A stretch of 50,300 nucleotides of DNA from Patescibacteria group bacterium (lineage in GTDB: Bacteria; Patescibacteriota; Minisyncoccia; Minisyncoccales; PEYH01): assembly GCA_018900835.1 (NCBI GenBank), contig JAHIFQ010000015.1, positions 1 to 50,300 on the forward strand, read 5' to 3'. The notes under the pieces are model-generated. The model did no database searches. It was not told where the DNA came from and was given only the letters and a program-made list of their open reading frames with translations. Position numbers and translations under genes: made by a program. Below, piece by piece: positions 15,600 to 22,169 of this stretch (positions are counted from its first letter, which is position 1; the number at the start of each line of letters is the position of its first letter).

Positions 15600-17750
15600 G
15601 TAAAGATAAAGGGATAGAAAGACAGATGTGTTGGGCAAGAACATTGAAAAATAAATAACAAAAGTTAAGGAAGTTTAGAAAGGAAATCGAGGTAACTTTA
15701 TTTTTTATGGGCAGATGGTGGATGCCTTGGGACCGGAAGGCGATGAAGGACGTGGCGTGGCTGCGATAAGCTTCGGTGAGGTGCCTAGCAACCTTTGACC
15801 CGAAGATCTCCCAATGGGGAAACCTAACATTGTAAACCAATGTTGCGTACTGCTTGCAGTACGAGCAAAACCTGGAGAAGTGAAACATCCCAGTATCCAG
15901 AGGAAAAGAAAAAAATGTCATTGTTTATCAATGACGCATTCCTTTAGTAGCGGCGAGCGAAACAGGAAGTAGCCTAAACCGAGTACATAATTTATTATGT
16001 GCTTGGGGTTGTAGGGAAATTTCATCAGGATCTTGCCCTTTAGGCGTTGTGCTTCGGCACATGCTTAGAGGGCTGGATTGCTGAGGAAGTAATTCATAAA
16101 ATTGTTAGTTGAATGCTCTGGAAAGAGCAGCTAAAAAAGGTGATAGCCCTGTAAGCGAAAATGATTTTATGCTTCTTGAAATTTTTCCTGAGTACCGCCG
16201 GAAACGATAACTTGGCGGGAATCAAGCTGAACTATCAGCTAAGGCTAAATACTAACCGGTCACCGATAGTGAACCAGTACCGTGAGGGAAAGGTGAAAAG
16301 TAGCCCGGTGAGGGCGGTGAAATAGTACCTGAAACCATTATGCCTACAATGAGTCAGAGCCCTTCGCATAACTTTGTTATGCTCAGGGTGATGGCGTGCT
16401 TTTTGTAGAACGAGCCAACGAGTTATAGTACACAACCAGGCGAAGCCCCTCTGGGGCACAGCCACAGGGAAACCGAGTATTAATAGTGCGTAGTCGATTT
16501 ATCGACTTTGTTGTGTGCTATAGACCCGAAGCCAGGCGATTTTGCCCTGGGCAGGATGAACCCCGCCGAAAGGTGGGAGGAGGTCCGAACCCGTAGGTCG
16601 TGCAATTCCTTGGGATGACCTGGGGCAGGCAGTGAAAAGCTAATCGAGCTTGGTAATAGCTGGTTCTCCCCGAAATAGCTTTAGGGCTAGCTCTTCATAT
16701 TTTTCTGGGGGTAGAGCACTGGATGGAATTTCTTGGATTTATCCGGATTTTCCAACCAAACTCCGAATACCAGAATGTATTTTATGGAGAAGTAAGTCTG
16801 CGAGGGCTAAGCTTCGTGGACAAAAGGGAAACAGCCCAGATCCTCATCTAAGGTCCCTAAATTTAAACTAAGTGCATCAAAGGAGGTGAGATTCTTTCGA
16901 CAGCTAGGAGGTTAGCTTAGAGGCAGCTATCCTTTAAAGAGTGCGTAACAGCTCACTAGTCAAAGAGTTTTGCGCCGAAGATTCACGGGGCTAAAGTTTA
17001 ATACCGAAGATAGGAATGTCAGCGCTTTGCGCTGGCGTGGTAGGGGAGCGTTCTCTCGACACTGAAGCCGAACCGTGAGGTTTGGTGGAGTTGAGAGAAG
17101 TGAGAATGTTGGCATGAGTAACCACAATTCCGATGCAAACTCGGAACACCGTAAACCCAAGGTTTCCTTGGCAATGACAATCAGCCAAGGGTTAGGCGGA
17201 CCTAAGGAAAAGCCGAAAGGCGTATCCGAACGGACAGCCGGTCAATATTCCGGCCCTCCGATTCTTTTTCAAGAGAGTGCGGAATTTAGTAAGCGGGGCG
17301 AGTTATTGGATTCACGTTGTTGGCTTGAGCTTTGGCAAGAGCTGACAGGAAGTCCGTCCTCGGACGGGTGAACTCCGCTGAGCAAGTTTCCTAGAAAAGC
17401 TCTCAAGAGCTAAAAGAATTGGAACCGTACCAAAAACCGACACAGGTGGGTAGGCGTTAGTGTGCCAAGGTGAACGAGTGAAACCTCGTCAAGGAACTCG
17501 GCAATCAAGTGACCGTAACTTCGGGATAAGGTCTCCCTGTGAGGTAGCAATATCTCATGGGGCGCAGCGAAAGTTTCCCTGGCGACTGTTTATCAAAAAC
17601 ACAGGTCCCTGCTCAACTCGCAAGAGGATGTATAGGGGCTGAGGCCTGACCAGTGCTGGAACGTTAACCTCGTCGGTCGCGCACTTTTGTGTGCGGCTAA
17701 GCGAGCGAAGCGCCAGTAAACGTCGGCGATAACTATAATCGTCCAAAGGT

Positions 17751-18358
17751 ATCAACGATGCTTTTGTAAAACTCGGCTATATGCTGGAAAGTCTGGAGTA
17801 TCTGGAGCTACTTATGGTAAAATAATTTAAAGGGGTAGTTGGCCCTTAAATATTATGCCAAGTAAAAATGCTTCCAGTGCAGATAATCAGCAGGAAAGGA
17901 TAGAAATGTGTGGATGGATAGTCGGCCTTGTAGATGGAGAAGGATCATTTTTGATCAATATATTCCGTTCTCCAAGAGCCAAAATGGGTTGGCAAGTTTT
18001 TCCAGAATTTAATGTTTCTCAAGCAAAAAAAGGAATAGATTTGCTCTATGAGCTGAAATCATAGAGACAAGTCAACATTTGAGTATAGACGGCATGAGAA
18101 ATATTGCTAAAATTGTGGAAGGAATGACCCACAGAAAACCATTTAATCAATCATCCGCTTCAAAATTTCTATCATCCTCAGAGACTATACGCCGAGACCG
18201 TTAATTTTTTGTCAAAAACGAAAAATAATAACGGTAAGATATAGTCCGAGCTCTACTGCGAGGTAGAGAGAGTGAGTTTAAATACTCGCTCCGCCCCGCA
18301 CATAAATTATGTGTTGGGTTAGTACCTGCTTGAAAAAGTTGGGAAAGTAACAGACCTG
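17751..18358 (+). ncRNA. Group I intron 1 (L1931)
   Basis: 608 nt. The 5' exon ends CAAAGGT, pairing with the internal guide GCTTTTG (17760-17766) and closing on a U.G pair; the terminal G is 18358, after which the conserved AGCG resumes. Core motifs include GCTATATGCTGGAAAGTC (P/Q side), CAGAGACTATACGC (R) and AAGATATAGTCC (S, about 18234). The site matches the position of known bacterial introns in Thermotoga and Simkania (L1931). It carries a decayed LAGLIDADG gene. Confidence 0.88.
17855..18204 (+). pseudogene. Decayed LAGLIDADG endonuclease in intron 1
   Basis: The open N-terminal part (17855-18064, 69 aa) begins after an ATG and contains GWIVGLVDGEGSF, the LAGLIDADG catalytic helix, followed by EFNVSQAKKG. 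It stops at 18062. A continuation in the +1 frame to 18204 encodes LSIDGMRNIAKIVEGMTHRKP, typical of the family's C-terminal part. About 45 residues expected between the halves are missing. So the gene suffered an internal deletion plus a frameshift and cannot make an active homing enzyme. Its 3' end merges into the R element of the intron. Confidence 0.8.
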
Positions 18359-18378
18359 AGCGTAATCCCTTGCCAGGT

Positions 18379-19181
18379 AAGAAATTGCCTGTCTAGAGAG
18401 TGATCTCTAGAAAAAATTCGGCTAATAACGGTGAAACCCAAGTTATTTCTATGTTATAATAATAGAAGTAACGGGTAATACCGTGGGAAGTCGTCCCGCT
18501 CTTTCTATATTTTGAAAACCGTTTTTCTACTTGTTTAGCAGTAGTAGATAATGAAGGCGGTTAAGATTCGAAGTTTAGAAAGAGCGGGATTGACCCCGTA
18601 ACGACTCTAATTGCTAAGCAATTAGGATGATGGGGAGTTTTCTAAAAGAAAATTTAACCAACATAATATGCCGACTCTTAATAAAGTGAATTTAGAATCC
18701 TATATAAGTGGATACGTAGACGGAGAAGGAAGTTTTTGTGTCTCAATGAGACCACGTAAAGGAAATATAGTGGGGTGGGAAGTAGTAGCAAGCTTTTCTG
18801 TCTCACAGAACGAAGACAGATCAGAAGTGTTATATCTAATCAGGAATTATTTCAAATGTGGTTTTATTAGGAAAAATGTCAGCGATAAGACGCTGAAATA
18901 CGAGACAAGAAACTTGAGTGATTTAACTACAAAGATAATCCCTCACTTCGAAATATATCCCCTACAATCTGGCAGACAAAAAGATTTTGAAATCTTTAAG
19001 AAAGCTTGTCAGAAAATGAGAAGAGGAGAACATTTGAGGAAGAAGGGGTTAATCGAAATCGCTGAATTAGTCTCTAATATGAATCCTTCTGGAAGACGTC
19101 TCTATCAAAAGAATATGATTCTATATTCTCTGAATAAGATGAAGATATAGTCTGTACCATTAGTAATAATGGAGTAATGTG
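18379..19181 (+). ncRNA. Group I intron 2 (L1951)
   Basis: 803 nt. The 5' exon end CAGGT pairs with guide GCCTG (18387-18391) closing on U.G. The terminal G is 19181; the following AATTTCTGG... aligns base for base with E. coli 1952 onward. Core elements: hairpin CTAGAGA/TCTCTAG, GGCTAATAACGGTGAAACCC, CCGTGGGAAG, the R-like GACCCCGTAACGACTC and S GAAGATATAG. Coxiella has an intron at the same site (L1951). The endonuclease gene sits between R and S (P8 region). Confidence 0.88.
18668..19150 (+). CDS. LAGLIDADG homing endonuclease in intron 2 (intact)
   Basis: A 160-residue single-motif LAGLIDADG enzyme, the length expected for a homodimeric I-CreI-type protein. The catalytic helix is YISGYVDGEGSFCVS (about 12-26), with D19 and E21 region residues as metal ligands. 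It is followed by VASFSVSQNEDRSEVLYLI, FKCGFIRKNV and HFEIYPLQSGRQKDFEIFKKA, all standard family elements. It would cut intron-free 23S alleles at or near position 1951 and so drive intron spread. The stop codon lies within the S element of the intron, so coding sequence and ribozyme core overlap. It is the best candidate for an active enzyme here. Confidence 0.9.
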   Translation: MPTLNKVNLESYISGYVDGEGSFCVSMRPRKGNIVGWEVVASFSVSQNEDRSEVLYLIRNYFKCGFIRKNVSDKTLKYETRNLSDLTTKIIPHFEIYPLQSGRQKDFEIFKKACQKMRRGEHLRKKGLIEIAELVSNMNPSGRRLYQKNMILYSLNKMKI

Positions 19182-21290: not shown

Positions 21291-21363
21291 CAACACATCC
21301 TGGGGGTGAAGCAGCTCCCAAGGGTATGGCTGTTCGCCATTTAAAGTGTTACGCGAGCTGGGT

Positions 21364-21825
21364 AAGTGTAAAATGAGCCCAGTCTAAATCGACTAATAAC
21401 GGTGAAGCCCAACTTCTTTTGTGGTAAAATTAAAGAATGGGTAATACCGTGGGAAGACAATTTTATCTCTCTAAACAGCAAAAAGAGATAATATTCGGAT
21501 GTCTTTTGGGAGACGGGAGATTAGAATCCAGATCTTTGGATAATACTTCAAGATTAAGGATTCATCATGGATGGAAACAGAGAGATAGGGATAAGTTTCG
21601 ATTGAGGTTTCCTAAACAGGAAGCAGCTAAATTGATAAATATCATATCTTCTCATATCATCCCGTCAATGAGATACAAAATTGTCCCCGTAGAGACTTCT
21701 CAAAAATGAGAGATGGTAGGTAAATTCTTATAAAGAGCTAAACTATCATAATACGTCGATAAAGTGCTTTGAAAAACGCACTTGATAAGTTATAGTCCGT
21801 ACTTGTAGTAATACAAGAATATACG
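21364..21825 (+). ncRNA. Group I intron 6 (L2584)
   Basis: 462 nt. The exon end CTGGGT pairs with guide GCCCAG (21377-21382), closing on U.G. The terminal G is 21825, before TCAGACCGTCGTGAGACAG (E. coli 2585 onward). Core: CGACTAATAACGGTGAAGCCC, CCGTGGGAAG, CCCCGTAGAGACTTC and a late GTTATAGTCC. It carries an internally deleted endonuclease gene. Confidence 0.86.
21437..21709 (+). pseudogene. Internally deleted LAGLIDADG_2 endonuclease remnant in intron 6
   Basis: A 90-codon open frame begins inside the intron core (ATGGGTAATACCGTGGGAAG) and encodes LSKQQKEIIFGCLLGDGRLES, clearly motif 1 of the same family as the intron 3 enzyme, then RLRIHHGWKQRDRDKF. It jumps directly to a C-terminal piece, KLINIISSHIIPSMRYKI, equivalent to the last 30 residues of that enzyme. 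About 110 central residues, including the second LAGLIDADG helix, are gone in frame. The remnant cannot be an active nuclease; it records an earlier full-length gene in this intron. Confidence 0.82.
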
Positions 21826-22169
21826 TCAGACCGTCGTGAGACAGGTTGGTCCCTATCTACCGCAAGCGACGAGGATTGAGGGAAGTTGCAGATAGTACGA
21901 GAGGACCTCTGCGAACTAACCTCTGGTGTGCCAGTTGTCCTGCCAAGGGCATTGCTGGGTAGCTAAGTTAGGACAGGATAACCGCTGAAAGCATATAAGC
22001 GGGAAGCCCCTCCCAAGATTAATCCTCATAGACAGGTTGGAGATCACAACCTTGATAGGCCTTAGATGTAAGCTCTGTAAAGAGTTTAGTCGAGAGGTAC
22101 TAATTAGTCATTAATATATTGTGCCTTGATTTCCTTTTTAAGAGTCCTTAACAAAAAAAGAGCGTAGTT

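What the first reader, a model, noticed from the sequence alone, without database searches (positions are those of the whole stretch)
15692..22125. 23S rRNA gene carrying six group I introns
More than half of this rRNA gene (about 3.43 of 6.43 kb) is intron. Each 5' splice site is supported by a 5-7 bp P1 pairing closing on U.G, each 3' end by a terminal G, and each junction restores conserved 23S sequence. Exon lengths fit E. coli numbering (1931, 1951, 2449, 2500, 2511, 2584). Intron-bearing rRNA is known from CPR, Thermotoga, Coxiella and Simkania, but six in one bacterial 23S gene is exceptional, and five of them lie in domain V or the peptidyl-transferase ring.
Basis: partly seen in the sequence, partly recalled or inferred. 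Interest (0 to 1): 0.85.

Follow-up and report, generated by a model that had tools for sequence, protein, structure and literature searches.

The report
Six self-splicing introns, one 23S gene
The only 23S ribosomal RNA gene of this tiny-genome bacterium is interrupted by six mobile self-splicing (group I) introns, which is a known habit of its phylum, but the introns led to something that looks new: a bacterial promoter sequence hidden in one hairpin of such introns that could switch on the DNA-cutting enzyme they carry.

Summary
The window holds the genome's only 23S gene, interrupted after E. coli positions 1931, 1951, 2449, 2500, 2511 and 2584 by six introns (3,431 nt). Every junction restores conserved 23S sequence. 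All introns have the group I signature (exon U, P1, terminal G, core elements). The spliced gene keeps 53/53 functional-centre residues tested and a 29-bp processing stem, and a same-genus relative is intron-free at all six sites. "Exceptional" is not supported: 82% of surveyed CPR 23S genes carry insertions, up to 16 per gene, and two other genes in my sample carry six introns. The introns show every stage of the homing cycle: two intact LAGLIDADG genes (one I-SceI-like, at I-SceI's own site), two broken, two lost. Endonucleases group by insertion site, so each intron probably arrived by homing.

New lead: the P5 hairpin of endonuclease-bearing introns in this phylum carries an extended -10 promoter motif (TGnTATAAT-like): 54/120 on the sense strand, 0/120 on the other. 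It is absent from neighbouring segments, mostly lost when the endonuclease is lost, and a pre-stated prediction was met on new genomes (38/61 versus 2/61). It suggests the endonuclease is expressed from its own promoter inside the rRNA gene.

The parts
15692..22125 (+). Single-copy 23S rRNA gene; spliced exons 3,003 nt
   Evidence: RF02541 full length; co-linear with E. coli rrlB; 53/53 PTC/SRL/H69 residues identical to E. coli
15452..15479 (+). Probable 23S promoter, TTGACA-N16-TACACT with TG before the -10
   Evidence: 10/12 consensus match; conserved in the two closest relatives
15662..15693 (+). 5' arm of the 23S processing stem (8 + 21 bp)
   Evidence: duplex -39.9 kcal/mol with the 3' arm, conserved in G009
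22122..22153 (+). 3' arm of the 23S processing stem
17751..18358 (+). Group I intron after E. coli 1931 (608 nt), degenerate LAGLIDADG_1 gene inside
   Evidence: RF00028 35.2 bits; P1 CAAAGGU/GCUUUUG; PF00961 6.7e-10 with one stop; same-site homologue in L040 84%
17815..17823 (+). Extended -10-like TGGTAAAAT in the L1931 intron
18379..19181 (+). Group I intron after E. coli 1951 (803 nt)
   Evidence: RF00028 30.8 bits; P1 5 bp, P10 7 bp
18452..18460 (+). Perfect extended -10 TGTTATAAT in the P5 hairpin loop of the L1951 intron
18668..19150 (+). Intact LAGLIDADG_1 homing endonuclease gene, 160 aa, in the 3' half of the L1951 intron
   Evidence: PF00961 8.7e-24; PDB relatives aHE15, I-PanMI, I-SmaMI, E 4e-36 to 3e-34; nearest to other L1951 HEGs
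19671..20575 (+). Group I intron after E. coli 2449 (905 nt), the site of the yeast omega intron
   Evidence: P/Q/R/S elements; HEG-less homologue RF00028 34.4 bits; P1 6 bp, P10 5 bp
19685..19693 (+). Perfect extended -10 TGTTATAAT in a hairpin near the 5' end of the L2449 intron
   Evidence: direct sequence; 18-nt identity with the L1951 P5 loop
19770..20423 (+). Intact LAGLIDADG_2 homing endonuclease gene (first ATG of the frame; a later ATG may be the start), I-SceI-like
   Evidence: PF03161 4.7e-37; best solved relative I-SceI, E 7.6e-14, both LAGLIDADG motifs aligned
20627..20981 (+). HEG-less group I intron after E. coli 2500 (355 nt)
   Evidence: RF00028 55.5 bits, above gathering; P1 7 bp, P10 4 bp
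20752..20760 (+). Decayed -10-like TGGCAAGAT in P5 of the L2500 intron
20993..21290 (+). HEG-less group I intron after E. coli 2511 (298 nt), 11-nt exon before it
   Evidence: RF00028 38.1 bits; 92% same-site homologue in L040
21068..21076 (+). Extended -10-like TGGTAAAAT in P5 of the L2511 intron
21364..21825 (+). Group I intron after E. coli 2584 (462 nt), at a rare site, with HEG remnant
   Evidence: P1 7 bp; RF00028 18.4 bits; only two other real L2584 introns found by pattern in about 85,000 genomes
21422..21430 (+). Extended -10-like TGGTAAAAT in P5 of the L2584 intron
21437..21709 (+). LAGLIDADG_2 remnant: N and C termini kept, middle deleted
   Evidence: PF03161 3e-4; groups with intact L2584 HEGs of L081/L084, support 95

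Best explanation
This is a functional, single-copy 23S rRNA gene carrying six group I introns. Shown by sequence: exact junctions, P1, terminal G, core elements, intact functional centres and processing stem. Inferred: after transcription each intron folds, uses an external guanosine to cut after the exon U held in P1, and joins the exons at the G. The introns are homing elements at different stages of decay (two intact endonuclease genes, two broken, two lost). Each probably reached its site as a DNA copy through a LAGLIDADG endonuclease specific to that site, because the endonucleases group by insertion site. A further inference, from a phylum-wide signal, is that while the endonuclease gene is present it is transcribed separately from an extended -10 sigma70-type promoter, usually placed in the P5 hairpin. 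That transcript would lack the 5' splice site and so serve only as endonuclease mRNA. Confidence: about 0.95 for the six introns, about 0.85 for homing as the main way of spread, about 0.6 for the promoter. The confidence given below is for the intron and homing parts.
For: Junctions and exons. Group I features. Single copy. Function: 53/53 key residues, 29-bp processing stem conserved in a relative, conserved promoter. Mobility: same-genus G009 is empty at all six sites at 95% exon identity; HEGs group by site; the L2449 HEG is an I-SceI relative at the I-SceI intron's own site (that omega lies at L2449 is my own knowledge). Promoter: P5 motif in HEG+ introns 54/120 sense against 0/120 antisense, no comparable asymmetry in neighbouring segments; replication stated beforehand and met, 38/61 sense against 2/61 antisense, HEG- 5/24; TG.TA...T the most enriched word of its shape; a sigma70 region 3 domain is encoded in this genome.
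Against: No RNA data: splicing and transcription start sites are unobserved. The L2584 match to RF00028 is weak and L2449 has no direct match. P1 of L2511 alone is not better than chance (p 0.11). The motif counts are not corrected for relatedness between introns. In the first sample the HEG+/HEG- difference was modest (p 0.017 at the lower cut-off, 0.08 at the higher; 0.12 in another tally). In the window the L2449 motif lies outside P5, and the L2511 intron keeps the motif without a HEG.
Confidence: 0.9

Rival explanations
1. The insertions are RNase III-type intervening sequences, cut out without ligation to leave a fragmented 23S rRNA.
For: Such IVSs exist in CPR and other bacteria (PMC11270868); short non-intron insertions occur at other sites of relatives' genes.
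Against: All six sites lie in conserved functional RNA around the peptidyl-transferase centre and its neighbourhood; each has P1, terminal G and a group I core. Known IVS sites are elsewhere.
Confidence: 0.02
2. Pseudogene or assembly artefact: the gene is dead or the contig a chimera.
For: Metagenome-type draft in 20 contigs; one related contig (G104:C28) looks mis-binned.
Against: Only 23S in a genome listed as complete; 53/53 functional residues and conserved processing stem; conserved neighbours with relatives; flanking PBP gene 79-86% identical to same-genus genomes.
Confidence: 0.02
3. The introns multiplied inside this gene: one intron copied itself to neighbouring sites by reverse splicing, followed by reverse transcription and recombination.
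For: The P3-P5 block is shared across sites: L2584 and L2511 67/72 identical, L1951 and the L2473 intron of L040 73/76; L2500 and L2511 86% over 122 nt. Related introns at different sites are the usual circumstantial evidence (PMC3984707; PMC1299323).
Against: HEGs group by site; the window L2584 intron carries a remnant of the L2584-type HEG; same-site homologues exist for the other introns. The tree tests on the block lack power (AU p 0.14-0.16), so partial exchange of the block between introns (gene conversion) remains open as well.
Confidence: 0.15
4. The P5 motif is an RNA element (for example a loop that docks elsewhere in the ribozyme), not a promoter.
For: It sits in a hairpin of the catalytic RNA, often at the apex; L2511 keeps it without a HEG in two species.
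Against: Associated with the HEG (32/61 against 3/24 at the strict cut-off; L2500 site alone 5/7 against 1/12, chosen after the fact); position within P5 varies from 18% to 77% and P5 length from 30 to 109 nt; its word is the extended -10 consensus and the decayed versions lose consensus bases.
Confidence: 0.3

Closest known systems
Group I introns in CPR (Patescibacteria) rRNA genes, Tsurumaki et al. 2024 (PMC11270868)
   Same: [quoted passage not shown] intact, degenerate and ORF-less copies at the same sites; introns in 16S too
   Different: That survey does not mention promoters, gene conversion or reverse splicing, and its main text does not mention position 2511 or 2584 (figures and supplements not read)
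Yeast mitochondrial omega intron with I-SceI (LSU position 2449)
   Same: Same insertion site (own knowledge for omega) and same endonuclease family; I-SceI is the best solved relative (E 7.6e-14)
   Different: Bacterial host; the window protein is distant from I-SceI; activity untested
Multi-intron cyanobacterial 23S genes (Synechococcus C9: L1917, L1931, L2593; PMC1995217)
   Same: Several HEG-bearing group I introns in one bacterial LSU gene; L1931 shared
   Different: Three introns there, six here; the text does not mention L2449 or L2500
Coxiella, Simkania and Thermotoga 23S group I introns
   Same: L1951 (Coxiella) and L1931 (Simkania, Thermotoga) are the same sites
   Different: One or two introns per gene (partly own knowledge)
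Phage T4 td/nrdB/nrdD introns, whose ORFs have their own late promoters (own knowledge)
   Same: Intron endonuclease transcribed apart from its host gene
   Different: Phage late promoters and protein-coding host genes; here a sigma70-type motif in P5 of rRNA introns

Membership tests
Group I intron | 5' exon ends in U that pairs with G in a P1 helix formed by an internal guide sequence | tested here: met
   All six, 5-7 bp; L2511 not better than shuffles on its own, p 0.11
Group I intron | Terminal guanosine at the 3' end of the intron | tested here: met
   All six
Group I intron | Conserved catalytic core (P, Q, R, S; P3-P8), RF00028 | tested here: met
   Four introns at E below 1e-4 and L2584 weakly, E 0.42; L2449 through its HEG-less homologue, 34.4 bits; motif elements in the five introns of that subgroup
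Group I intron | Self-splicing with exogenous G and ligated exons | not testable with these tools
   Needs RNA
LAGLIDADG homing endonuclease (L1951, L2449 genes) | LAGLIDADG domain with complete reading frame | tested here: met
   PF00961 8.7e-24; PF03161 4.7e-37
I-SceI-like endonuclease (L2449 gene) | Two LAGLIDADG motifs aligned with I-SceI, same target site | tested here: met
   the site identity with omega is own knowledge
LAGLIDADG homing endonuclease | Cleaves the intronless site | not testable with these tools
   Needs assay
RNase III-type 23S intervening sequence | Inserted in variable, dispensable helices, no splicing signals | tested here: not met
   Sites in conserved functional RNA with group I signals
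Sigma70 extended -10 promoter (P5 element) | TGn followed by a TATAAT-like hexamer, beyond chance | tested here: met
   54/120 sense, 0/120 antisense in P5; replicated
Sigma70 extended -10 promoter (P5 element) | Transcription start about 7 nt downstream | not testable with these tools
   Needs 5'-end mapping

The most novel reading that the evidence does not exclude
Endonuclease-bearing group I introns in the rRNA genes of Patescibacteria carry a sigma70-type extended -10 promoter inside the P5 hairpin of the ribozyme, so that one stretch of DNA serves both as catalytic RNA and as the promoter of an independent endonuclease mRNA. The element decays once the endonuclease gene is lost, and the P3-P5 block holding it may pass between introns at different sites.
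Probability: 0.55. Interest if true: 0.68.

Novelty: new member of a known kind. Interest (0 to 1): 0.5.

Why it matters
The gene shows the whole homing cycle side by side: two intact endonuclease genes, two broken and two lost, against an intron-free sister species. If the P5 promoter is real it answers, for bacteria, how a protein gene buried in a spliced, untranslated rRNA is expressed; the same question is still called intriguing for nuclear rDNA introns (PMC9548176). It could be tested with a reporter in E. coli. It would also mean a catalytic RNA hairpin is under two selections at once, and it gives a sequence mark for introns whose endonuclease is, or recently was, active.

Tried and rejected
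1) "Six is unique": rejected (L040 and L072 also have six). 2) Horizontal transfer of the L2511 intron between classes, suggested by a 92% match in G104 of another class: rejected, because the exons on that contig are 95.6% identical to the window's and the upstream neighbour gene is the same, so the contig is probably mis-binned. 3) Ectopic duplication within the gene: not favoured, because HEGs group by site; exchange of the P3-P5 block stays suggestive only (AU not significant). 4) First HEG-upstream scan used wrongly oriented loci for minus-strand hits; redone. 5) Six of the eight hits of the L2584 pattern scan were not introns but sequence variants of the ordinary gene, or in one case unrelated sequence after the pattern.
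Full report
WHAT WAS CHECKED. The Rfam bacterial LSU model matches 15695-22122 over its full length, followed by 5S at 22174-22281. A spliced aligner written for this purpose returned the same six introns when given the joined exons as reference. The introns total 3,431 nt (608, 803, 905, 355, 298, 462).

ARE THEY GROUP I INTRONS. Each 5' exon ends in U, each intron ends in G, each has a P1 of 5-7 bp closing on U.G, and several have P10 (7 bp for L1951, 5 for L2449, 4 for L2500). RF00028 finds L2500 (55.5 bits, above gathering), L2511, L1931 and L1951 clearly and L2584 weakly. 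L2449 is missed, probably because a 650-nt gene splits its core, but the HEG-less homologue at the same site in L040 scores 34.4 bits. Five of the six share variants of the core words AACGGTGAA, CCGTGGGAAG, CCCCGTAGAGACT and TATAGTC; L1931 lacks them and seems to belong to a different subgroup.

IS THE GENE ALIVE. It is the only 23S in a 654,511-bp genome listed as 100% complete. The spliced product has 53 of 53 tested peptidyl-transferase, sarcin-ricin and helix-69 residues identical to E. coli, and a flanking processing stem of 8 + 21 bp (-39.9 kcal/mol) conserved in the same-genus genome G009. The promoter TTGACA-N16-TACACT at 15452 is conserved in two relatives. Neighbouring genes (an MscS-like gene before, mreC after) are conserved around the 23S of relatives, and a PBP gene nearby is 79-86% identical to same-genus copies, so the contig belongs to this genome.

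HOW UNUSUAL. Relatives differ sharply. G009 has none of the six introns at 95% exon identity; the contig G104:C28 (95.6%) has six at 1917, 1931, 2449, 2473, 2511 and 2593; other members of the family have one or two. Across the sample, 23S genes with five or six introns recur. Published work on CPR reports insertions in 82% of 23S genes, a maximum of 16 per gene and 5,750 bp in total (PMC11270868). Six is therefore high but ordinary for this group. The L2584 site is rare: a pattern scan of about 85,000 genomes found only two other real introns there, both in Parcubacteria MAGs; this counts only introns that do not begin with T and that follow the exon pattern used.

HOMING CYCLE IN ONE GENE. 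Intact endonuclease genes lie in L1951 (LAGLIDADG_1, 160 aa) and L2449 (LAGLIDADG_2, 217 aa). The first matches aHE15, I-PanMI and I-SmaMI structures at 4e-36 to 3e-34, the second I-SceI at 7.6e-14, and it sits at the very site of the yeast omega intron (own knowledge). L1931 holds a LAGLIDADG_1 fragment with a stop. L2584 holds a LAGLIDADG_2 remnant whose ends survive and whose middle is gone, and it groups with the intact genes of the two other L2584 introns. L2500 and L2511 have no gene. HEG trees largely group by insertion site, which favours site-specific homing.

MOSAIC SIGNAL. The P3-P5 block may not follow the same history as the rest. The L1951 intron's 3' part is nearest to other L1951 introns, but its P3-P5 block is nearest to the L2473 intron of L040 (73/76); the L2584 block is nearest to L2511 (67/72 in the window, 68/72 in L040). 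The block is short, and AU tests do not reject same-site grouping (p 0.14-0.16). Exchange between introns is suggested, not shown.

THE P5 PROMOTER LEAD. While reading these blocks I noticed that the P5 hairpin often contains TGnTATAAT. In 108 P5 segments from Patescibacteria the motif (score 13.5 or more) occurs on the sense strand in 45 and on the antisense strand in 1 (two of the 108 repeat window introns in gapped form). I then wrote down a prediction and tested it on introns from class-level genomes, using P5 sequences not seen before. HEG+ introns have it in 38/61, the antisense control in 2/61, HEG- introns in 5/24. At the strict cut-off: 32/61 against 3/24, Fisher p 6e-4. Pooled, P5 of HEG+ introns gives 54/120 sense against 0/120 antisense at the strict cut-off, while the segments after Q, after R and upstream show no asymmetry and the P1-P2 segment only a slight one (11/128 against 3/128). 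Among all words of the form ab.cd...e, TG.TA...T is the most enriched in the replication set (38 loops; 4.7 expected, 2 antisense). P5 length (30-109 nt) and motif position (18-77% along it) vary, which fits a DNA element better than a fixed RNA loop. LAGLIDADG_1 introns at other sites show the same motif 13-60 nt before the HEG start in several cases. In the window it is perfect in L1951 (18452-18460) and, outside P5, in L2449 (19685-19693), near-perfect in L1931, L2511 and L2584, and decayed in L2500 (TGGCAAGAT). The genome encodes a protein with sigma70 region 3, the domain family that contacts the TG (the contact is own knowledge).

LIMITS. There is no RNA evidence. Counts are not corrected for shared ancestry of introns. 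HEG presence was judged by reading-frame length in the P5 tests. The motif weights were set by hand from the E. coli consensus before the replication. Papers outside the open library may already describe such promoters; in the papers I could search, none was found for rRNA group I introns of bacteria.

VERDICT. Observation confirmed. As an object it is a further example of a known kind (multi-intron CPR 23S genes), with one intron at a rare site. The by-product, a promoter-like element inside a ribozyme hairpin, is the part a specialist would want to test.

Noticed in passing
G000:C1:26698-30063 (L135): The single 16S gene of this genome is also split: model matches in three pieces, three LAGLIDADG genes in or beside it, and a group II D1-D4 hit at L135:5389-5480.
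   Followed up: partly
15531-15598: Between the 23S promoter and the 23S gene lies a terminator-like hairpin with a competing upstream arm (GGAAGCGGT ... ACCGCTTC ACTT GAAGCGGTTTTTT) and a possible 17-codon leader peptide at about 15491. The hairpin is conserved in two relatives with a T-A to C-G swap in the competing pairing: a candidate attenuator on an rRNA gene.
   Followed up: partly
13698-15432: The rRNA operon is dispersed: tRNA-Ile and tRNA-Ala stand 2 kb before 23S with an aspartyl-protease-like ORF and an MscS-like gene between; 16S is on another contig.
   Followed up: no
L040 (G104:C28): A contig binned in a genome of another class carries a 23S 95.6% identical to the window's exons and the same upstream gene; probably mis-binned.
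   Followed up: partly
3842-11101: A 2,419-aa ORF with higher G+C than its surroundings, not examined.
   Followed up: no
33500-37000: Stretch of G+C 0.41-0.52 in a background near 0.37, with GC skew near zero in part of it, possibly acquired.
   Followed up: no
20780-20816 and 21096-21132: The L2500 and L2511 introns share an identical P6 hairpin with its flank (about 36 nt, GTGGGAAGTCGTCCCGCACATAAGTTCTTATGTGCT; positions approximate), beyond the shared P5 block.
   Followed up: no
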